A stretch of 63,552 bases of DNA from a virus. The notes under the pieces are model-generated. The model was not told where the DNA came from and did no database searches. It was given only the letters and a program-made list of their open reading frames with translations. Both the position numbers and the translations under genes were made by a program. Location: the IMG/VR virus record IMGVR_UViG_3300022744_000006, positions 1-63,552 of that record; one strand, 5' to 3'. The stretch's first letter is position 1; every line of letters starts with the position of its first letter. Positions 7,629-56,372 of the stretch are shown piece by piece.

Positions 7629-8477
7629 TTACGGGACTTGAGAAATGGCGAACACGGGAGAAGCCTCGAACACCGGATCGCGGTGGCCGCCGTAGACGTA
7701 GGTCGGTGACTGCGACGCCGGGAGCATGCGTCGGACGCGCGCGATCACTTTGCCGGGGCTTTCGCTCGGATATGACGCGAGTACTTTCCGAAGGGCACCC
7801 GTGAAAGCCCCGTTGTTCGTGCCGTCCTCCGCCGTTTGATTGTCCTGGCACGCTCCGAACGCCAGCAATGAAGCCTTGATCTTGGATCGGCTCCTGGCGC
7901 TGGCCTTGGCGAGCGCATAGACCCCCTGATTTCGGAACCATACCGAGCTGACCAGGTCATTCGGCATGGCTCGGGATGAGCTCGCCAGTGGCCGGTCGGT
8001 CCCGGCCGAATGCATGACCCTGGCCATCGTTCCGGAGTGGCAGGAGTCAGACACGAAAAACAAGCGCACCCCGGCCGCGAACCTGGACCAGGCAAGCTCA
8101 AGTTCATCGTCGATGATTTGCCGATCGTACATGCAAATCGTCTCATCATAGCCGTTGTCGTTGCCATCCTGATCGGGCACTTGTCCGCCATGCGAGCTGG
8201 ACGTGACAACAACGATGTCGCCCGGCTTTGCGGTCTTGGACATGTCCAGTAGCCAGCGCAACACGACCGAGCTCACAGCCTGCTTAGTCAGCAAGATGTC
8301 GGTGGCGAATCCCTTGGATTTCAGCAGATCGCGCATGTCTTCGGCATCCGCTTCGCATGCATTCAGCCGGCCCGACCAACCGTCGTAATGCGCCGGATCT
8401 ACGGCGTTCAGACCGATGCAGAGCGCGTACCCTTTGCCGGGTTGAACGGTTGCCTTTTTCCAAAACTTGAGGTTCAT
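7629..8477 (-). CDS. Metacaspase-like (caspase-fold) cysteine protease, 282 aa
   Basis: A p20-type caspase domain fills the protein. GYALCIGLN begins the fold at residue 16; SSSHGGQ holds the catalytic His96; DGNDNGYDE and IIDDEL are typical metacaspase segments; FFVSDSCHSG holds the catalytic Cys146; GACQDNQTAED plus GAFTGAL are the usual C-terminal marks of bacterial orthocaspases. Both catalytic residues are present, so an active Arg/Lys- or Asp-type protease is plausible. The ATG at 8477 has GGAG seven bases upstream and overlaps the stop of the M15 peptidase gene, so the two are coupled and probably expressed late. No signal peptide. A caspase in a phage lysis position is unusual; it may act in host killing, virion maturation or against a host system. 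Confidence 0.88.
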   Translation of the reverse strand: MNLKFWKKATVQPGKGYALCIGLNAVDPAHYDGWSGRLNACEADAEDMRDLLKSKGFATDILLTKQAVSSVVLRWLLDMSKTAKPGDIVVVTSSSHGGQVPDQDGNDNGYDETICMYDRQIIDDELELAWSRFAAGVRLFFVSDSCHSGTMARVMHSAGTDRPLASSSRAMPNDLVSSVWFRNQGVYALAKASARSRSKIKASLLAFGACQDNQTAEDGTNNGAFTGALRKVLASYPSESPGKVIARVRRMLPASQSPTYVYGGHRDPVFEASPVFAISQVP

Positions 8478-9046
8478 CGCCATTCTCCAATCTCGAAATG
8501 CATGGGGTCGATCATTTTTCCTCCCCAATCCGCTCCGCACACTATCCCGGCCTCCCAGGTTGTGCCGTGGAAAGGATCGATGATCGGGACATGAACGGTG
8601 CGCGCCTTTTCGATGATCGGCCCCAGCCATCCGATCTCCCCTTGCTTCGCCCCAGGCGTCGAGCGCCGGTTCTGCTCGGGGTTGAAATCCATGGCAATGC
8701 CGCGGCTGTGCCGGCTCAAGAACGGCGCCCAATCCCGCGTGTAGTCTGACGTGTCCGGAAGGTTCGCGCCCCGCATGATGCGTGGAACGAAGCTGCCCCC
8801 GAACGTCAGAATGCACTCGCATTCTTGGCGGCGGAACGATCGGAACCACTCCTCGAACACTGGCGCGGCGCGCTTGTGCACGCGGATGTGCGTGGTGATC
8901 TTTGTTGGAATGGGGAGCTTCAGATTGACAAGGTTGTCGGCCTCCCACTTCAGCGGGACCTTGACCTTGCCTGACTCGTCTATCGTGAACGACAGATCGA
9001 AGTTTGTGATCAGTCGAGACTTGGTCAGCTGTTGAACCACGGGCAT
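8474..9046 (-). CDS. M15-family zinc peptidase, probable endolysin, 190 aa
   Basis: The C-terminal half has the M15 (VanY/L-Ala-D-Glu or D-Ala-D-Ala peptidase) signature: SRHSRGIAMDFNP gives His113 and Asp120, and DPMHFE gives His183 with Glu185, the expected zinc ligands and catalytic acid. Phage members cut peptidoglycan cross-links at lysis. The N-terminal 60 residues are beta-like and may be a substrate-binding or virion-attached segment. No signal peptide, so it would need a holin to reach the wall. It is coupled downstream to the metacaspase gene and overlaps the small gene upstream by 22 bases. Confidence 0.85.
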   Translation of the reverse strand: MPVVQQLTKSRLITNFDLSFTIDESGKVKVPLKWEADNLVNLKLPIPTKITTHIRVHKRAAPVFEEWFRSFRRQECECILTFGGSFVPRIMRGANLPDTSDYTRDWAPFLSRHSRGIAMDFNPEQNRRSTPGAKQGEIGWLGPIIEKARTVHVPIIDPFHGTTWEAGIVCGADWGGKMIDPMHFEIGEWR

Positions 9047-9273
9047 GTCTCACCTTCGGTTTCGGGCGACTTCACCGCCCGACACAAGACGCACTGCGGG
9101 TGAGGCAACTTCAGGTATGGCTGCTGACCAGGAGTCCAGTCAGCGTACACGTTCCACACATGTTGCATGCTCGGGTGGGCCGGGCGCGCGGCTGCTGGCG
9201 GCTTCCCGCGAACTAACAGCTTTCGCAGGAAGCCAGCCAGCCTGACTAGCCTGGACCGAACTGCATCCATCAC
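9025..9273 (-). CDS. Hypothetical small protein, 82 aa
   Basis: Basic N-terminus with a hydrophobic helix (VRSRLVRLAGFLRKLLVRG), then a Pro-rich part and a CVLC motif with a further Cys near the end. It overlaps the endolysin start. It could be a small membrane-active lysis partner, but nothing proves this. Confidence 0.5.
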   Translation of the reverse strand: MMDAVRSRLVRLAGFLRKLLVRGKPPAAARPAHPSMQHVWNVYADWTPGQQPYLKLPHPQCVLCRAVKSPETEGETCPWFNS

Positions 9274-44565: not shown

Positions 44566-46382
44566 CTGCGACCTCCCTTGAACATCCGCAGCCTACCCCG
44601 TTGGTCACCGCCGCGCGCAAGCTTCTGAGCCTCTTCGAGGGCGATTTCGTGCGGGGCCTTGGGCACCCACGGAAGGCGCTCGACCACGGATACGCCGGCC
44701 GGAAAGTCCTTGAGGATGTGCTCGGGAGGGTGCGGCCGAAGGTTCTCGTATTGCTCCACCTTGCGGACGAGGTAGACCAGCGCGGCAAGGGCGTCAAAAT
44801 GGCCGTAGACCGGGTGCTGCGCGAGCTTTCCGCGCTTGTCGCGCTTGCCGGCGCGCACGTGATCGATGACACAGCCCGCGTCCTTGTGGAACCACATGCG
44901 GCCCTCGGACACCCAGTTCCGGAGGTTGCGGAGCATGGTCGTGAGCTCCTCTTTGGTCGTCGGGAGGAACTCCAGGCCGTAGTGCTCGTCGATGTCTCGG
45001 ATCAGCTGCTTGTCTACGTCCGAGACGCGTGACGCCGGGTTCAACTTGAAACCGGTCCGATCGTAGTAGGGCGTGATCGCGCCGGGGATCTTCTTGGTGA
45101 TCCAGTCGCCCGGACGGCGCTCCGTGTGCGGGCGCTCCTGCGACGGTACCTGAGCCATTCGGTGCATCTCCGGAGCAAGGTGCTCGTACTTGTCACCGCG
45201 GAGCAAGTCTGTCCATCCAGCGTGGTCACCATCGTGGCGCAGCGGAACGCGACGCATGCGGGTGTCCGGCCACTTGCCCCACAAGACGAACTCGCGCACG
45301 GCGCACACCGCGGAGACTTCCATGGATCCCGCGTTGCTCTTGGCCCAGCTGTCGAGGATGAGCAGACGGTCCGCATCCCAGTCGTACTCGCCGAACACCA
45401 GGGCGAACAGGTGTGTCTGTCCAGGGTCGGCAGCGACAAAGCCGTAGCCGTAGGCGGGGCGCTCGAAGGCGCGAACGTGGAGCTCGCGATCGAACTCGGG
45501 GACGGCCTTGAGGCTCGGGTCTCCGGCAATAATGTTGAAGTACTCGCGCTCGCAGTTCGGGTCCCCTCGCCCGCCTGCCATTCGAATCCAATACTCCTTC
45601 TCTCGCGCGGAGAGCTTGGAGTTGTCCATGATCGTGACTTCGGAGAACGCCCCGCGCCGTTTGGCGTCGGGCATCACCACGCGTTCCCAGTCCGTGTCGA
45701 GGTCCTCCGGCGCGGAGCTCTCGACGAACATGCGCGCCCAAGGCCGCTGCTGGTACTGGTGAATCAGAACGTTGCGGATCGAGTACTCAAGGTGATCGAT
45801 GAACGCAGCTTCCGAGACGAAGTCGAAGTCGTTCGCCTGCCCGCGAAGGGCATCCTTGTTCATGTCGATGCCGGCCAGCGCGAGTCGTGCGCCGCCCGTC
45901 GGGCCGTGCTCGGGCCAGTACAGACCGGCCGGCAAGATGCCGCGCTTTCCGTGATAGACAGGCACCGAGTGATCGGGCGCTGTCGCGAACGCCTGCGGGA
46001 TCACCGATCCAACAATCTCGTCGATGTTTTTCTGGAACGCGCTCGTCAACCGCATGCTCGCGGGACGCTTGTACGTGCGATAAAACCACACCGCGATCTC
46101 GTAGGCGATCCAGATGTACAGCGTGGTCTTGCCGAAGCGCTTGCCGCCCGCGATCACGTAGATCAGCGGGATGCTTCCAACCTCGTGGACCTTGTCCAGC
46201 TGCTCAATGCGGCGCCACTCCTGGATGGCGTCTCTGAGCGCGAGCTGGCCTTCATGCATGAGCCCGGAAAGATCACCAGTCTCCCATCCGAGAAGAATCA
46301 ACTCCTCGTCCGAGAGACTTTCCAGGACATCGTCAGATACAGACGTCTCGTGTATCAAATCATTGTCGTCAGGGTAGTTCAC
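44562..46382 (-). CDS. terL: Terminase large subunit, GTG start, 606 aa
   Basis: ATPase domain: Walker A IAGGKRFGKTT near residue 80, Walker B region DFDFVSEAAFID near 188-197 and coupling ESS near 222. Nuclease domain: an RNase H-like strand with acidic residue in GYGFVAADPGQTHLFALVFG near 315, and a C-terminal GHFDALAALVYLVRK. It packages DNA into the prohead through the portal. The frame opens at ATG 46403 inside hairpin copy 5; I prefer GTG 46382, ten bases after the hairpin stem, as in the other copies. It overlaps the upstream small gene. Confidence 0.9.
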   Translation of the reverse strand: MNYPDDNDLIHETSVSDDVLESLSDEELILLGWETGDLSGLMHEGQLALRDAIQEWRRIEQLDKVHEVGSIPLIYVIAGGKRFGKTTLYIWIAYEIAVWFYRTYKRPASMRLTSAFQKNIDEIVGSVIPQAFATAPDHSVPVYHGKRGILPAGLYWPEHGPTGGARLALAGIDMNKDALRGQANDFDFVSEAAFIDHLEYSIRNVLIHQYQQRPWARMFVESSAPEDLDTDWERVVMPDAKRRGAFSEVTIMDNSKLSAREKEYWIRMAGGRGDPNCEREYFNIIAGDPSLKAVPEFDRELHVRAFERPAYGYGFVAADPGQTHLFALVFGEYDWDADRLLILDSWAKSNAGSMEVSAVCAVREFVLWGKWPDTRMRRVPLRHDGDHAGWTDLLRGDKYEHLAPEMHRMAQVPSQERPHTERRPGDWITKKIPGAITPYYDRTGFKLNPASRVSDVDKQLIRDIDEHYGLEFLPTTKEELTTMLRNLRNWVSEGRMWFHKDAGCVIDHVRAGKRDKRGKLAQHPVYGHFDALAALVYLVRKVEQYENLRPHPPEHILKDFPAGVSVVERLPWVPKAPHEIALEEAQKLARGGDQRGRLRMFKGGRR

Positions 46383-49357: not shown

Positions 49358-49430
49358 GCGTCACCCCGTTCATTGGGTAAGCGAGGGCAAGCGATGTGCA
49401 GGAGCCACCTACCACACCGCCCGCCCCCGG

Positions 49431-49502
49431 CTAAGCACCCAGGACTCGAACCTGGAACCTTCGGATTTGGAATCCGATGCTCTGCCATTGAGCTAGTGCC
49501 TA
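49431..49502 (-). tRNA. tRNA-Trp (CCA anticodon)
   Basis: A full cloverleaf can be drawn on the minus strand: acceptor TAGGCAC/GTGCTTA with one G-T, TA at positions 8-9, D stem GCTC/GAGC, anticodon stem TCGGA/TCCGA with loop TTCCAAA (anticodon CCA), five-base variable loop, and T arm CCAGG-TTCGAGT-CCTGG. Discriminator G. The 3' CCA is not encoded. It reads UGG. It may supply tRNA-Trp if the host pool is degraded or limited. Confidence 0.93.
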
Positions 49503-51868: not shown

Positions 51869-52120
51869 CTACGCTTCGCGGTGCATGCTCTCGCGAGCTC
51901 TCTTCTCCCGCTCTTCGCTGTCGAAAGCTCGCATAGACCGCGCGAGCTCGCCAAACCCAATGAAGCCAACAACGAAAAATGCGGCGAACAATAGCGCTGC
52001 TACAGCGTCGTTCGGCGCATCCAGCAGGCTCACCAGAACCCCGACTACGCATACGCAGCGCAGCAAGAACACCACCGACTGCACAAAGAACAGCCTGAGC
52101 TCAAACTCGTCTTCGTTCAC
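51869..52120 (-). CDS. Two-TM membrane protein, 83 aa
   Basis: Two hydrophobic helices, FFVQSVVFLLRCVCVVGVLVSLL and AVAALLFAAFFVVGFIGFGEL, followed by a charged helix (ARSMRAFDSEEREKRARES). Its start overlaps the stop of the next TM gene. Holin-like size, but the accessory context makes an envelope or defence role equally likely. Confidence 0.6.
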   Translation of the reverse strand: MNEDEFELRLFFVQSVVFLLRCVCVVGVLVSLLDAPNDAVAALLFAAFFVVGFIGFGELARSMRAFDSEEREKRARESMHREA

Positions 52121-52344
52121 GCTGTTCCTTTCGTTAGCAGCTCACCCCGAATCGACTTGGACAACCGCCCAAGGCCCCAGAAACCGGCCCCGAGGAACAG
52201 AATCCAGAAGACGCTCTCGACGGGTTCGTCTCCCCTGGCCATATCAACTGCTTGCCATATGACCCAGTACGCGAGCACCCAGCGGAAAAAAGCAAGGAAC
52301 CGAGCCACCCACAAAACCATGCGGTCAAATCCGTTCTTGTCCAT
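52117..52344 (-). CDS. Small membrane protein divergent from Ro60 gene, 75 aa
   Basis: Two hydrophobic segments (MVLWVARFLAFFRWVLAYWVIW and VESVFWILFLGAGFWGLG) with a short polar loop. ATG 52344 is preferred; an upstream TTG at 52359 lies inside the operator-like repeat. It and the 83-aa protein share size and topology with a GLGRLSKS/GFGELARS ending after the second helix, so they may be paralogues. Confidence 0.6.
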   Translation of the reverse strand: MDKNGFDRMVLWVARFLAFFRWVLAYWVIWQAVDMARGDEPVESVFWILFLGAGFWGLGRLSKSIRGELLTKGTA

Positions 52345-52348
52345 GTGC

Positions 52349-52388
52349 CGGCTTGACAATGGTCACTTGCCATTCAATGGTCAAGCCG
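52349..52388. promoter_or_regulatory. Nested inverted repeat in Ro60 divergent promoter
   Basis: CGGCTTGAC (52349..52357) is the reverse complement of 52380..52388, and inside it AATGG (52358..52362) pairs with CCATT (52370..52374). TTGACA at 52353..52358 could be a -35 for the Ro60 gene. The arrangement suits a regulator controlling both directions. Confidence 0.55.
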
Positions 52389-52437
52389 CTTTCGTACATG
52401 GTGTGCGAGGGCAAGGTTCGCGGCGCGTCGTCATGAG

Positions 52438-52467
52438 TCAGTGCGTTGGTAGGTCCTAGCGCACTGA
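52438..52467 (+). other. 8-bp hairpin in Ro60 leader
   Basis: TCAGTGCG (52438..52445) pairs with CGCACTGA (52460..52467). The leader also has GCGGCGCGTCG twice (near 52420 and 52471). Possibly an RNA element acting on Ro60 translation. Confidence 0.4.
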
Positions 52468-52508
52468 AAAGCGGCGCGTCGCGAGCTTCAGCATGACCAG
52501 GGGTAGAC

Positions 52509-54302
52509 ATGGACAACAGACTCTTTGGACAAGCGCCACGTGGAGCAGTGATGCCCCCGGCAGACACCGTGAACGCCGCGGGTGGGATTGCGTATAAGCT
52601 CTCTCCGGAGGAAGCCCTGGCGCAGTACTGCGCTACCGGGATGTTCGGAAGCACATTCTACGCGTCAGCGCAGGACCAGCTCTCCGAGGTTGTGGAGCTG
52701 GCCAAGAAATGTGATCCGCGGTTTGTGGCGAAGTGCGCGGTGTACAGTCGCAAGCATGGGTACATGAAGGACATGCCCGCGGTGCTACTCGCCACGTTGA
52801 GCGTCCGCAGCCAGGAGATGAGGGTTGTTGATGGAGTGTTGCAGAGCGACCACCAAATCGCGTGCCGCGCCCTCCGGGCCGCGTTCCCGCACGTGATCGA
52901 CAACTATCGCATGCTGAGCAACTACTACCAGGTGCTCAAAAGCGGCGCGCTCGGCAGGAAGAGTCTGGGTAAGCTTCCCAAGCGTCTGATGCAGCAGTGG
53001 TTGCTCAACGCGCACCCGGTAACGCTGTTCAACGCGCAGTTCGGCATCCCGAAGCCCGGCATTCGGGAGATCATCCGATACGTGAACCCACGAGCGCTCT
53101 CAAAAGAGCAGATCGCTATGTTTGGATACCTAACCGGACCGGCCACGCGTGAGTACCGGCCAAGGAGCCCCGAGAGTCGCTCCAGGATCGAGCGCAGGAT
53201 CGCCGCGTCTCGAATGACCGTCGAGAGCCAGGACGAGAACAGTTTGACGGTCGACAGGTACCAGCCGGAGTTTCTCCCGGCCGTATTTCGCGCGTACGAA
53301 GCGTTCAAGGCGGCAAAGCTGGCGGGAAAGCCCGCTGACGTGAGCTTCCTTACCGATTGGAAGGTCGATTTTCGTGCCGTTGACAGCCTGGGATTGACCA
53401 GAGACGAGTGGGAGGCCGTCGGCCGGCGAGCGGGCGTCAAGATGGCGCTCATGAACATCAATACGTTCGCGAGGCAAGGTCTGTACGGTGACGATCCCAT
53501 CTTCAGGGACACCGAGTTCGCCAAAGAGATCGCCAAGAAGATCTCCGATCCTGCGGAGATCTTAGAGGCCCGCCTCTTCCCGCACGAGGTATTCAAGGCG
53601 GACCGATACGCTACCGAGGCGCCGATTCGCATTCGCGGGGCACTGATTCAGGCTCTCGAAAACTCCATCACGAACGTGCCGGAGTTGAGCGGCAACACGG
53701 TGGTTTGCGTCGACGTTAGCGGATCTATGGATGAGCGCGTTTCGAAGGGCTCGTCGACCCGCATCGAAGTCGCCGCTGTGTTCGCCGCAGCGCTGTTCAA
53801 GCGCAATCCAGGAAAATGCAGGATCCTGGCGTTCAATACGGACTCGGCTTTGATCCACGTGAGCACCGAACAATCCGCGATGCACATTGCCGGCTGCATC
53901 ATCGCCTGCCTTGGCGGAGGAACATCGCTCTCCTCCCCAATCTGCTACCTGAACGGTGCGAACCCGTACATGAAGCTGATGACTGGCCTGCAGAACGTGA
54001 TCATGATCTCGGACAACGAGTCATGGGCTGACCCAAACGTGAACTACGGCTACGCCGGTCCAAGCACCACGTTTGCCCGCGAGTGGTCCATCTTGAAGTC
54101 TCGCAACCCCGAGGCGAAGCTGGTCATGATTGACTTGGAGCCGAAGGCGAACACGCAGGCCCCATCCGCACCGGACAGACTGAACGTTGGCGGATTCAAT
54201 GACTCAGTGTTCCGGGTCGTCTCAAGCTTCTTGGAACCGACCAAGCGATCCAGATCCCACTGGGTTGATGAAATCGAATCAATCAACCTGATGGGCTGTT
54301 GA
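52509..54302 (+). CDS. rsr: Ro60 / TROVE-domain RNA-binding protein (Rsr), 597 aa
   Basis: Residues about 30-390 are the HEAT-repeat-like TROVE ring (LSPEEALAQYCATGMFGSTFYAS, DPRFVAKCAVYSRKHGYMKDMPAVLLATLS, WKVDFRAVDSLGLTRDEWEAVGRRAGVKMALMNINTFARQG). Residues 395-570 are a von Willebrand A domain with the MIDAS DVSGSM (Asp402, Ser404, Ser406), GGGTSL and ISDNESW. Ro60 proteins bind Y RNAs on the outer ring and misfolded RNA ends in the pore, and in bacteria partner with exonucleases in RNA quality control. AGGGG lies five bases before the ATG. About 60 residues longer than usual, with a charged insertion near 210-250. Directly followed by a structured, U-tailed RNA candidate. Confidence 0.93.
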   Translation: MDNRLFGQAPRGAVMPPADTVNAAGGIAYKLSPEEALAQYCATGMFGSTFYASAQDQLSEVVELAKKCDPRFVAKCAVYSRKHGYMKDMPAVLLATLSVRSQEMRVVDGVLQSDHQIACRALRAAFPHVIDNYRMLSNYYQVLKSGALGRKSLGKLPKRLMQQWLLNAHPVTLFNAQFGIPKPGIREIIRYVNPRALSKEQIAMFGYLTGPATREYRPRSPESRSRIERRIAASRMTVESQDENSLTVDRYQPEFLPAVFRAYEAFKAAKLAGKPADVSFLTDWKVDFRAVDSLGLTRDEWEAVGRRAGVKMALMNINTFARQGLYGDDPIFRDTEFAKEIAKKISDPAEILEARLFPHEVFKADRYATEAPIRIRGALIQALENSITNVPELSGNTVVCVDVSGSMDERVSKGSSTRIEVAAVFAAALFKRNPGKCRILAFNTDSALIHVSTEQSAMHIAGCIIACLGGGTSLSSPICYLNGANPYMKLMTGLQNVIMISDNESWADPNVNYGYAGPSTTFAREWSILKSRNPEAKLVMIDLEPKANTQAPSAPDRLNVGGFNDSVFRVVSSFLEPTKRSRSHWVDEIESINLMGC

Positions 54303-54412
54303 CTTTCGATCAAGATGTACCTATGTGTCTCTTGGGTGGAAGAACGTTCGGGGATTCATCCTTGCAAAGATTGACCGGCCTCGAATAACCACAGTCCACC
54401 TAGCATACGATT

Positions 54413-54561
54413 CTAGACAGGGAAGATGTAAGGCTATACATCGAAGATAATCCGAAGGTTGCCGCGTAGAAAACGGCTCGCGTCTGTAACAGGGGGCGAT
54501 AGCTCAAGCTAGAGCAACGGAGAGAAGTCTTGCGAACACAGTCCCTGTTCTGTTTTTTTTT
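54413..54561 (+). ncRNA. Candidate Y-like RNA downstream of Ro60
   Basis: The 5' end ACAGGGA (54417..54423, with AG before it) can pair with TCCCTGT (54542..54548), which is followed by TCTG and nine T, the form expected of a Y RNA terminal stem with intrinsic terminator. Inside are GATGTA/TACATC (54425..54430 with 54437..54442), GCCG/CGGC (54461..54464 with 54474..54477) and a tRNA-like D arm, TAGCTCAAGCTAGAGCA (GCTC/GAGC at 54502..54515). An alternative pairing of AACAGGG (54488..54494) with CCCTGTT would close the D-arm part as an acceptor-like stem. No ORF fits. A TAGCAT -10-like box lies at 54401..54406. Bacterial Y RNAs carry a tRNA-like module and are encoded beside Ro60. Confidence 0.6.
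54534..54561 (+). terminator. Intrinsic terminator of Ro60 / candidate Y RNA
   Basis: The imperfect hairpin GAACACAG-TCC-CTGTTC ends in TG and nine T (54553..54561). It separates the Ro60 unit from the gene at 54576, which must be transcribed by read-through or its own promoter. Confidence 0.7.
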
Positions 54562-54575
54562 GAAAGGACACGAAT

Positions 54576-54764
54576 ATGCCAAAGGGAGTTACCACGATGA
54601 CCGGGACGCAGCGCACGCTGCTGTCTATCCAGGCCTCACTGAACAGCTTCAGTGAGCGCGTGAACGCCAAGATCAACGCGTTGACCGAGCGTGAAGCGAA
54701 TATCGCCAAGACGGGTGCGCCTAAGCGAGGCCGCAAACCCGCCGTCAAGAAAGCTTCCAACTAA
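54576..54764 (+). CDS. Small basic protein, 62 aa
   Basis: AAGGA lies about seven bases before the ATG. A helical core (QRTLLSIQASLNSFSERVNAKINALTERE) is followed by a Lys/Arg-rich, AT-hook-like tail (KRGRKPAVKK), suggesting nucleic-acid binding. It starts 15 bases after the T tract of the Ro60 terminator, so it could take part in the same RNA-linked system. Confidence 0.6.
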   Translation: MPKGVTTMTGTQRTLLSIQASLNSFSERVNAKINALTEREANIAKTGAPKRGRKPAVKKASN

Positions 54765-54972
54765 ACACTGCGCGAGCTGCGGCGGGGCAGCTCACCCAGC
54801 GACAGGATGCGCATGGTCGGACCGGACATTGATTTGCCGGTCATGTGCCATGCGCTTTTGGCGTTGGTGCGTGCAACACACCAGAACGAGAGAGCCGGGC
54901 CCGAGTTTCTATGACTGCGCACTCGTCAATCCGCCGGCCAGGGAGCCAACGTGCAATCGAGACGACGGTTAG
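54715..54972 (+). CDS. Possible zinc-ribbon protein, 85 aa
   Basis: CASCGGAAHPATGCAWS and CRSC form a four-Cys site in the middle, a convincing ribbon, but the start is unclear. GTG 54715 is in frame without an SD; the frame overlaps the previous gene's end. The C-terminus overlaps the GTG of the MazG-like gene. Confidence 0.4.
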   Translation: MRLSEAANPPSRKLPTKHCASCGGAAHPATGCAWSDRTLICRSCAMRFWRWCVQHTRTREPGPSFYDCALVNPPAREPTCNRDDG

Positions 54973-55220
54973 TTGTGGAGTGGTTCTCTGGGCTGATGCT
55001 CGACAAGCTACACCAGCCTCGCAACCTGGCTAAAGGCGACGAGTGGCACAAAGACTCTCTCGGCCTGCTGCTTTCGAGGCTCAAAGAGGAGCTTGGTGAG
55101 CTTGAGGCCGAGCTCTCTCGAGACCACATTGACCGTAGCGCGGTGGTGAGCGAAACGGTCGATGTGGCCAACTTCGCCATGATGCTGGCCGACGCGGTTA
55201 CCGGGTCACTCCCCGGCTAG
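54951..55220 (+). CDS. MazG-like nucleotide pyrophosphohydrolase, 89 aa
   Basis: The all-helical MazG-type metal site is visible: KEELGELEAEL (residues 46-56) and ETVDVANFAMMLAD near 68-80. Single-domain MazG-like proteins in phages hydrolyse NTPs or alarmones such as ppGpp. Start GTG 54951. It converges with the gene at 55206..56372, overlapping its end by 15 bases, so transcription collides here. Confidence 0.75.
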   Translation: MQSRRRLVVEWFSGLMLDKLHQPRNLAKGDEWHKDSLGLLLSRLKEELGELEAELSRDHIDRSAVVSETVDVANFAMMLADAVTGSLPG

Positions 55221-56372
55221 TACTCGAAAATCGTGTTCTGACCACGACTTCCCGAACGACGCGCGTTCCTTCAGGAACCGCGTCACTTTCGGAATCGAGA
55301 GCTTCGATGCCCAACCTCTCGACTCGTCTGCGCGTAGCCAGTCGATGAGTTCCTCCGCGCCGGCCGGCGTCGGATCCACCTCGGGCATAGTAGCGCTTGC
55401 CTCGCGCTTCTCCGCCTGCGCAGCGCGCTCAAGCTGCTTCCAGTACGAGGGAACAATGATCCTTCCCTCTGGCTTGACGATTACAGGCTTACAGCGCTTG
55501 CTCGGCTGCGGCGGATCGATGCTCTCGGCCTGGCCGGGATCGTCCCACGAGTCGCTCCATCCAAACTGGAAATCATGCCCCGAGCCAGGGTTGAACGTGA
55601 TGTCCTTCGATCCAACCTGCATGGCATTGGGAAGAGCCGGTGGGATGTGCACTCGCGTAGTGTACTGACCGTACCGCTCTTTGAAAATCCTTCCGATCCC
55701 ATCCAACGGGGAAGGTCCGACCAGCGCTCCGCTGTAGATGATCTCTCTACCCAGCTCGGAGCCGTCGGGCTTGTCGAACTTTTCCGGCTTCCATTGACAG
55801 CTTAGCTGTCTGAGCAGATCGTCTTTCGTTGGTTGGCTAGGCTTCCACCCAGGCTGGCTTTGCTCGCGGATCGCAGCATTCCAAGCCTCACTTGGCGAAA
55901 GCGCGACGTTCTTTGTGCGAGGTAGCCCTCTCTTGGGCCAGCTCAAGAACTCCGCACGGAAGTACGGCTCAGGGTCGTCTATGAACGTGTCTTGAAGAAG
56001 CTTTCGGACAACGGGAACCATTACGGGGATTTCCACGTCTCCGTACTTCGTCATCAGATCGTTTCTTGGAAGCTTGAGCGATCTCGGAAATGCCGAAATC
56101 GTCACACCCGCAGCGGATACTGGCTGTCGATACCCGAGCTCAAGCTTGAAAAACTCGTCCTCACCAATAAGCAACACCATCCTGGCAACCGTTCCCCAGG
56201 CTCGAGAGGCCGTCCATTCGCACACGTTGTCGTTCGTGTAGATCTGATCGTCCGATGACGGGTCCCATCGAAGCTTCACGCGCCGCGGCTTATAGGTCGG
56301 ATCTTGCGGAGGTTTGCCGTCCTCGCACTCCAAGCCCAGCGTAAAGAAATCCGCCTCGGTGATCTCCATCAT
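55206..56372 (-). CDS. Unknown protein, 388 aa
   Basis: The largest unassigned gene of the accessory arm. Acidic N-terminus (MEITEADFFTLGLECEDGKPPQD), a basic beta-like region (RRVKLRWDPSSDDQIYTNDNVCEWTASRAWGTVAR), a central helical part with many Trp and Pro, and a C-terminal helical region (EELIDWLRADESRGWASKLSIPKVTRFLKERASFG). No catalytic motif or fold I recognise. Two ATGs lie adjacent at its start. Confidence 0.65.
   Translation of the reverse strand: MMEITEADFFTLGLECEDGKPPQDPTYKPRRVKLRWDPSSDDQIYTNDNVCEWTASRAWGTVARMVLLIGEDEFFKLELGYRQPVSAAGVTISAFPRSLKLPRNDLMTKYGDVEIPVMVPVVRKLLQDTFIDDPEPYFRAEFLSWPKRGLPRTKNVALSPSEAWNAAIREQSQPGWKPSQPTKDDLLRQLSCQWKPEKFDKPDGSELGREIIYSGALVGPSPLDGIGRIFKERYGQYTTRVHIPPALPNAMQVGSKDITFNPGSGHDFQFGWSDSWDDPGQAESIDPPQPSKRCKPVIVKPEGRIIVPSYWKQLERAAQAEKREASATMPEVDPTPAGAEELIDWLRADESRGWASKLSIPKVTRFLKERASFGKSWSEHDFRVLAGE

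What the first reader, a model, noticed from the sequence alone, without database searches (positions are those of the whole stretch)
52509..54561. Phage Ro60/TROVE protein followed by a candidate Y RNA
The 597-aa product has the full TROVE ring and a vWA domain with an intact MIDAS. Directly downstream is a gene-free stretch that can fold with paired ends (ACAGGGA with TCCCTGT), ends in nine T, and contains a tRNA-like D arm. Bacterial Ro60 loci encode Y RNAs with a tRNA-like module next to the gene. A phage copy could redirect RNA decay or protect phage RNA during infection.
Basis: partly seen in the sequence, partly recalled or inferred. Interest (0 to 1): 0.87.

Follow-up and report, generated by a model that had tools for sequence, protein, structure and literature searches.

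The report
Phage Ro60 protein with Y RNA
This phage carries a gene for a ring-shaped RNA-quality-control protein (Ro60, known in humans as a lupus autoantigen) and, just downstream of it, a small partner RNA of the bacterial Y RNA type; such pairs are already known from bacteria and other phages, but both halves of this one have drifted unusually far.

Summary
The 597-aa ORF (52509-54302, +) is a Ro60 protein. AlphaFold2 gives the full TROVE ring plus vWA domain (pLDDT 87, pTM 0.88; Z 28 to Xenopus Ro60 over 478 residues), and all MIDAS residues are intact. The RNA at 54417-54548 is a YrlA-type Y RNA. Two covariance models built from Y RNAs beside other Ro60 genes, window left out, both rank it first in the 63.5-kb window, end to end (30.2 bits, E 3e-5; bacterial-only model 28.1 bits, E 9e-5). 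Rfam YrlA also aligns end to end, but at 19.2 bits, far under its cut-off of 69. Structure: 7-bp outer helix, 8-bp inner helix, UACAUC motif, T-arm-like and D-arm-like hairpins, then nine T. The kind is known: Y RNAs were reported in mycobacteriophages and a Thermus phage Ro60 has a solved structure. This pair is a divergent variant: the near-universal AUGC loop reads AGAU, the D-loop GG and T-loop UUCRA are lost, and the protein has Asn where all 160 aligned relatives have His or Arg. Function is untested; the likeliest is an RNP that steers structured-RNA decay or quality control during infection.

The parts
52509..54302 (+). Ro60 (Rsr/TROVE) protein gene, 597 aa; SD-like AGGGG at 52499-52503
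52551..53678 (+). TROVE HEAT-like ring (residues about 15-390)
   Evidence: AF2 model aligned to Xenopus, human and D. radiodurans Ro60 and Thermus phage phiLo Ro60
53136..53252 (+). Arg-rich insert, residues about 210-248, not seen in the phage relatives of A1; partly low confidence
53085..53087 (+). Codon of Asn193; the position is His (139) or Arg (21) in all 160 relatives with a residue there; aligns with Xenopus Ro60 His187
53694..54230 (+). vWA domain (residues 396-574) with MIDAS D402/S404/S406, T472, D502
54417..54548 (+). Y RNA (YrlA type), about 132 nt
54417..54423 (+). Outer helix, 5' strand ACAGGGA (pairs with 54542-54548)
54424..54427 (+). 5' recognition loop AGAU in place of the near-universal AUGC
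54428..54435 (+). Inner helix, 5' strand GUAAGGCU (pairs with 54526-54533, 8 bp)
   Evidence: sequence
54437..54442 (+). Conserved UACAUC motif after the inner helix
54461..54477 (+). T-arm-like hairpin GCCG-CGUAGAAAA-CGGC; canonical UUCRA loop lost
54502..54515 (+). D-arm-like hairpin GCUC-AAGCUA-GAGC; canonical GG lost from the loop
54526..54533 (+). Inner helix, 3' strand AGUCUUGC
   Evidence: sequence
54534..54541 (+). 3' loop GAACACAG, 8 nt as in phage locus L001 (GAUUCCGG)
54542..54548 (+). Outer helix, 3' strand UCCCUGU
54553..54561 (+). Nine-T run, likely transcript end

Best explanation
The phage encodes a complete Ro60 ribonucleoprotein: a TROVE-ring/vWA protein and its own YrlA-type Y RNA. 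Shown here by comparison: protein family and fold, RNA family, RNA architecture, and gene order. Inferred: the Y RNA's lower stem docks on the ring, and the upper, tRNA-like part gates the ring and tethers a host RNA-processing partner. The precedent is PNPase in D. radiodurans (the RYPER complex, PMC8394870, PMC7790460). During infection the RNP would then steer decay or quality control of structured RNAs such as tRNA and rRNA in the phage's favour. Identity about 0.93; the specific PNPase-tether mechanism about 0.45.
For: Blind covariance tests; Rfam YrlA end-to-end alignment; same RNA class beside Ro60 in phage contigs (158 matches at E<1 in 73 phage loci, not all of them Y RNAs since some cover only the tRNA-like module) and in 80 bacterial loci (319 matches), with helices kept by changes on both sides (19 of 23 pairs). 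Full-length Ro60 fold, intact MIDAS. Both Y RNA stems are intact in the window although the sequence has diverged: 7/7 outer pairs, 8/8 inner pairs (two G-U). Phage Ro60 genes of several relatives sit inside tRNA gene clusters, which points to tRNA or structured RNA as the working context.
Against: No expression or binding data. The RNA is far under Rfam's YrlA cut-off. The Ro60-recognition loop and the tRNA-elbow nucleotides are changed, so binding and tRNA mimicry are not assured. In the single-sequence ensemble the Y RNA inner helix has probability about 0.54, and a competing fold is 0.4 kcal/mol better. No PNPase, RtcB or RNA-ligase family was seen among the 30 larger window proteins scanned. 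No near relative of this phage was found to test conservation at short range.
Confidence: 0.6

Rival explanations
1. Ro60 and its Y RNA act without PNPase: the ring captures damaged or misfolded RNA, and the Y RNA only gates the ring or serves as a tRNA-like decoy, for example against anticodon nucleases raised against phages.
For: Phage Ro60 genes of several relatives lie in tRNA clusters; an inhibitor role of YrlA's tRNA-like part was proposed for Salmonella (PMC7790460). The tRNA elbow is degraded here, which would weaken recruitment of partners that read it.
Against: The degraded elbow equally weakens a tRNA decoy; only one tRNA gene lies in this window, 3 kb away.
Confidence: 0.27
2. The Y RNA is a decaying relic: Ro60 still works but the RNA no longer binds it.
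For: AUGC replaced by AGAU, D-loop GG and T-loop UUCRA lost, Asn at the H187-equivalent position, long Ro60 branch (1.88 changes per column).
Against: Outer and inner helices are fully paired despite sequence change, loop sizes match phage relatives, UACAUC is kept and the nine-T end is in place; a neutral relic would lose pairing. The Ro60 ORF keeps every MIDAS residue.
Confidence: 0.1
3. An ordinary intrinsic terminator or 3' untranslated region that only looks like a Y RNA.
For: Energy z-score only -1.07; ends in nine T.
Against: First in the whole window in two models that never saw it, full length; best Rfam family YrlA, end to end; adjacency to Ro60. A terminator needs no 132-nt branched fold with a UACAUC motif. 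The stem-loop terminator scan found nothing here.
Confidence: 0.03

Closest known systems
Bacterial Rsr/Ro60 with YrlA Y RNA (Salmonella rsr-yrlBA-rtcBA; D. radiodurans Rsr-Y RNA-PNPase, RYPER)
   Same: Ro60 protein with adjacent Y RNA on the same strand; outer helix, internal loop, inner helix, UACAU motif, T- and D-arm-like hairpins
   Different: In a phage; no rtcBA seen; recognition loop AGAU not AUGC; tRNA-elbow nucleotides lost; Asn for His/Arg in the protein
Phage Y RNAs (mycobacteriophages, Chen et al. 2014 as cited in PMC12282133; proposed Rsr/Y RNAs in Listeria phage CKA15, PMC12282133)
   Same: Phage-borne Ro60-like gene with nearby Y RNA
   Different: No close relation in sequence was found in the phage collection; here the RNA is directly downstream, single copy and divergent
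Ro60 of Thermus phage phiLo (PDB 9L5Y, 9KOP)
   Same: Phage Ro60 with TROVE ring and vWA domain; Z 24-26, 21% identity over about 445 residues
   Different: The window protein is longer, with an Arg-rich insert; phiLo Y RNA was not examined here
Myxococcus phage Mx1 TROVE protein (OR576727)
   Same: About 36-40% identical over almost the full length; Mx1 carries canonical Y RNA matches at 45167-45296 and 45519-45626 in a tRNA cluster
   Different: Mx1 Y RNA matches lie about 10 kb from its Ro60 gene

Membership tests
Ro60/Rsr protein family | TROVE ring of helical repeats closed by a vWA domain | tested here: met
   AF2 pLDDT 87, pTM 0.88; residues 15-578 align to Ro60 structures, Z 22-28
Ro60/Rsr protein family | Intact MIDAS in the vWA domain | tested here: met
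   D402, S404, S406, T472, D502 invariant
Ro60/Rsr protein family | Match to the Pfam TROVE sequence model | tested here: not met
   No match at E<=0.001, while relatives L001, Mx1, L086, L015, L092 match over the cut-off, some only just. This is a sensitivity limit of one model, not a failed fold test; NCBIfam Rsr matches at E 8e-12, far under its equivalog cut-off
Bacterial Y RNA (YrlA) | Encoded beside a Ro60 gene on the same strand | tested here: met
   Starts 114 nt after the stop codon of Ro60
Bacterial Y RNA (YrlA) | Outer helix, internal loop, inner helix with UACAU after it | tested here: met
Bacterial Y RNA (YrlA) | AUGC in the 5' strand of the internal loop (146 of 149 top bacterial, 61 of 76 phage examples) | tested here: not met
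   AGAU in the window; other phage lineages also depart, e.g. CUGC in L063 and L079
Bacterial Y RNA (YrlA) | tRNA-like T- and D-arm stems | tested here: met
   Four-pair stems at 54461-54477 and 54502-54515, pair probabilities 0.89-0.93
Bacterial Y RNA (YrlA) | Canonical T-loop UUCRA and D-loop GG | tested here: not met
   Absent in the window; UUCRA present in 45 of 52 phage and 137 of 143 bacterial full-length Y RNAs
Bacterial Y RNA (YrlA) | Score above Rfam RF02553 gathering cut-off (69 bits) | tested here: not met
   19.2 bits; the clearly related L001 copies also fall short at 49.9 and 39.5
Bacterial Y RNA (YrlA) | Transcribed and bound by Ro60 | not testable with these tools
   Needs RNA-seq and binding assays

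The most novel reading that the evidence does not exclude
The phage has an orthogonal Ro60-Y RNA pair: protein and RNA have changed their mutual recognition together (AUGC to AGAU in the RNA, His/Arg to Asn and Asp to Glu in the protein), so the phage RNP ignores host Y RNAs and host Ro60, and it has shed tRNA mimicry so that it engages a different partner.
Probability: 0.18. Interest if true: 0.65.

Novelty: new variant of a known kind. Interest (0 to 1): 0.47.

Why it matters
Ro60-Y RNA particles are found from phages to humans and their role outside a few bacteria is unclear. A compact phage pair with a changed recognition code gives a direct way to learn which nucleotides and residues make Ro60 recognise its Y RNA, and the many phage pairs in or near tRNA clusters suggest that phages use them to control tRNA or structured-RNA fate during infection.

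Tried and rejected
Free-energy folding as proof: rejected, z only -1.07. Rfam scan of the whole window at E<=10: the element is below the list, so custom models were needed; the genome search with RF02553 listed only places at the tRNA-Trp gene. Exact GAATGC-N-TACA motif search: none in the window, because the AUGC core is changed. Sigma-70 promoter and stem-loop terminator scan over 52000-55300: nothing, below shuffles; TACGAT at 54406-54411 would place a start at about 54417-54418 but has no supporting -35. Link between Arg (instead of His) at position 193 and non-AUGC loops across phages: 5 of 8 against 5 of 17 loci, Fisher p 0.19, not supported. Placing the window Ro60 in a tree: unresolved, long branch, no starred group holds it, so host or donor is not inferred. 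Near relatives by nucleotide or protein: none above 60% identity. The ECO95 1-6-1 and S.Kent 1-2-1 'phage' records with YrlB and YrlA look like host DNA fragments and are not counted as evidence for phages, although two L005 copies are among the 73 rows of A3.

Full report
Observation. The ORF 52509-54302 (+) encodes 597 aa. It matches PHROG 850, an RNA-binding protein family of phages (E 8e-34, residues 19-574), Pfam vWA_Ro60 (40.2 bits, cut-off 27.7) and NCBIfam Rsr (E 8e-12, far under the equivalog cut-off). Pfam TROVE itself does not match it, although it matches relatives over its cut-off. The fold settles the point: AlphaFold2 on an alignment of 79 Ro60s gives pLDDT 87 and pTM 0.88, and the model aligns from residue 15 to 578 with Xenopus Ro60 (Z 28, 3.1 A over 478 residues), and over most of its length with human Ro60, D. 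radiodurans Rsr and Thermus phage phiLo Ro60. The MIDAS residues D402, S404, S406, T472 and D502 are invariant. The window is phage DNA: DnaB-like helicase, Erf, Gam, major head protein, portal, terminase and DNA methyltransferase genes.

The RNA. Downstream lies ACAGGGA...TCCCTGT (54417-54423 with 54542-54548) and nine T at 54553-54561. Folding energy does not stand out (z -1.07). Rfam's YrlA family aligns end to end and is the best of 4227 families for this stretch, at 19.2 bits and E 0.15 for all families, but the curated cut-off is 69 bits and a scan of the whole window does not list it. I therefore gathered Y RNAs beside other Ro60 genes. The protein alignment A2 found 74 loci in viral contigs and 80 in genomes. 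Of the 80 bacterial loci, 77 carry the motif GAATGC-N4..16-TACA on the Ro60 strand, 3 on the other. Seventy-three Y RNAs (20 from viral or phage records, two of those from a fragment, L005, that looks like host DNA, and 53 bacterial) were aligned (A3); 19 of 23 consensus pairs show changes on both sides. These 73 were chosen by an exact GAATGC motif plus complementarity in the outer and inner helices, so they lean to the canonical form and their pairing in those two helices is partly built in by selection.

Blind tests. Model R1, built from A3 without the window, puts 54415-54550 first in the 63.5-kb window, positions 1-129 of 129, 30.2 bits, E 3.1e-5; the next match is the tRNA-Trp gene at 16.4 bits, partial. 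Model R2, built from 150 bacterial matches found by R1 and with the D-arm written in, gives the same place, full length, 28.1 bits, E 9.3e-5; next is the tRNA at 15.0. R2 descends from R1, so the two are not fully independent; Rfam YrlA is. E-values from these models are rough by about a factor of five. The element starts 114 nt after the Ro60 stop codon, which a chance match would have little reason to do.

Anatomy. Reading the window against the phage copy L001:5201-5345: outer helix 7 bp; 5' loop AGAU (L001 AUGCA); inner helix GUAAGGCU/AGUCUUGC (L001 GCAAGGAU/AUCUUUGC), 8 bp each; UACAUC in both; 3' loop GAACACAG (L001 GAUUCCGG), 8 nt each. The T-arm-like and D-arm-like stems have pair probabilities 0.89-0.93, the outer helix near 1, the inner helix about 0.54; a fold with all Y RNA helices is 0.4 kcal/mol above the minimum. 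The window RNA lacks the T-loop UUCRA found in 45 of 52 phage and 137 of 143 bacterial full-length copies, and its D loop is AAGCUA without GG.

Divergence of the pair. The AUGC loop is exact in 146 of 149 bacterial and 61 of 76 phage copies (the window is one of the 76); these are top-scoring copies from a model trained on AUGC, so the fractions are biased upward. Phage departures are partly lineage-wise: all five copies in the sister pair L063/L079 read CUGC. The window's AGAU is alone. In the protein, the position that aligns with Xenopus Ro60 His187 is His in 139 and Arg in 21 relatives, and Asn only in the window; at Glu187 of the window, 159 of 160 relatives have Asp. That Xenopus His187 contacts Y RNA is from my own knowledge of the structural literature, not tested here. 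One coupled case cannot prove co-evolution, and across phages Arg at this site is not significantly linked to loop changes (p 0.19). The window Ro60 is a long branch whose place in the tree is unresolved.

Mechanism. Known: in D. radiodurans, Y RNA tethers Rsr to PNPase for structured-RNA decay, and YrlA's tRNA-like domain is modified by DusA and TruB (PMC7790460; PMC8394870; PMC9176250). Inferred here: the phage particle works the same way with a host partner, or as a gate or decoy in RNA quality control. The phage context favours tRNA or structured RNA as the substrate: Ro60 genes of several relatives lie within tRNA clusters and in Mx1 the Y RNA matches lie among tRNA genes. None of this is shown for the window.

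Comparison. Phage Ro60 and phage Y RNAs are already known (mycobacteriophages, cited in PMC12282133; proposed for Listeria phage CKA15, same paper; 'Ro-like RNA binding protein' in actinophages; jumbo phages, PMC7824862; Thermus phage phiLo structure 9L5Y). The window adds a divergent member whose RNA falls outside Rfam's cut-off and whose recognition loop and tRNA elbow are altered. Verdict: real and well supported in identity, modest in novelty, mechanism open.

Noticed in passing
window 7629-9053 (-): Phage ORF with a caspase domain (Peptidase_C14, E 1.2e-22, residues 209-452; PADLOC caspase E 7e-6) that keeps the His (SSSHGG) and Cys (DSCHSG) of the catalytic pair; the true start is probably near the Met at about residue 191.
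   Followed up: partly
OR576727.2 (Myxococcus phage Mx1) 45167-45296 and 45519-45626: Two full-length Y RNA matches (E 6e-14 and 8e-8) among tRNA genes about 10 kb before the Ro60 gene in a cultured phage; the first is unannotated and the second overlaps a predicted small CDS (45524-45646).
   Followed up: partly
L028, L032, L059, L027: Phage contigs with arrays of about five to eleven Y RNA-like motifs or hairpins beside Ro60, some short without a tRNA-like module.
   Followed up: no
L063, L079: Sister phage Ro60s whose Y RNAs all read CUGC instead of AUGC and whose protein has Arg at the His187-equivalent position.
   Followed up: partly
L005, L006 (OR845705, OR851267): Short records filed as Escherichia and Salmonella phages carry the end of an Ro60 gene plus YrlB and YrlA above Rfam cut-offs; probably host DNA in the assembly.
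   Followed up: no
window 49429-49502 (-): The only tRNA gene of the window, tRNA-Trp(CCA), about 3 kb from the Ro60 gene.
   Followed up: no
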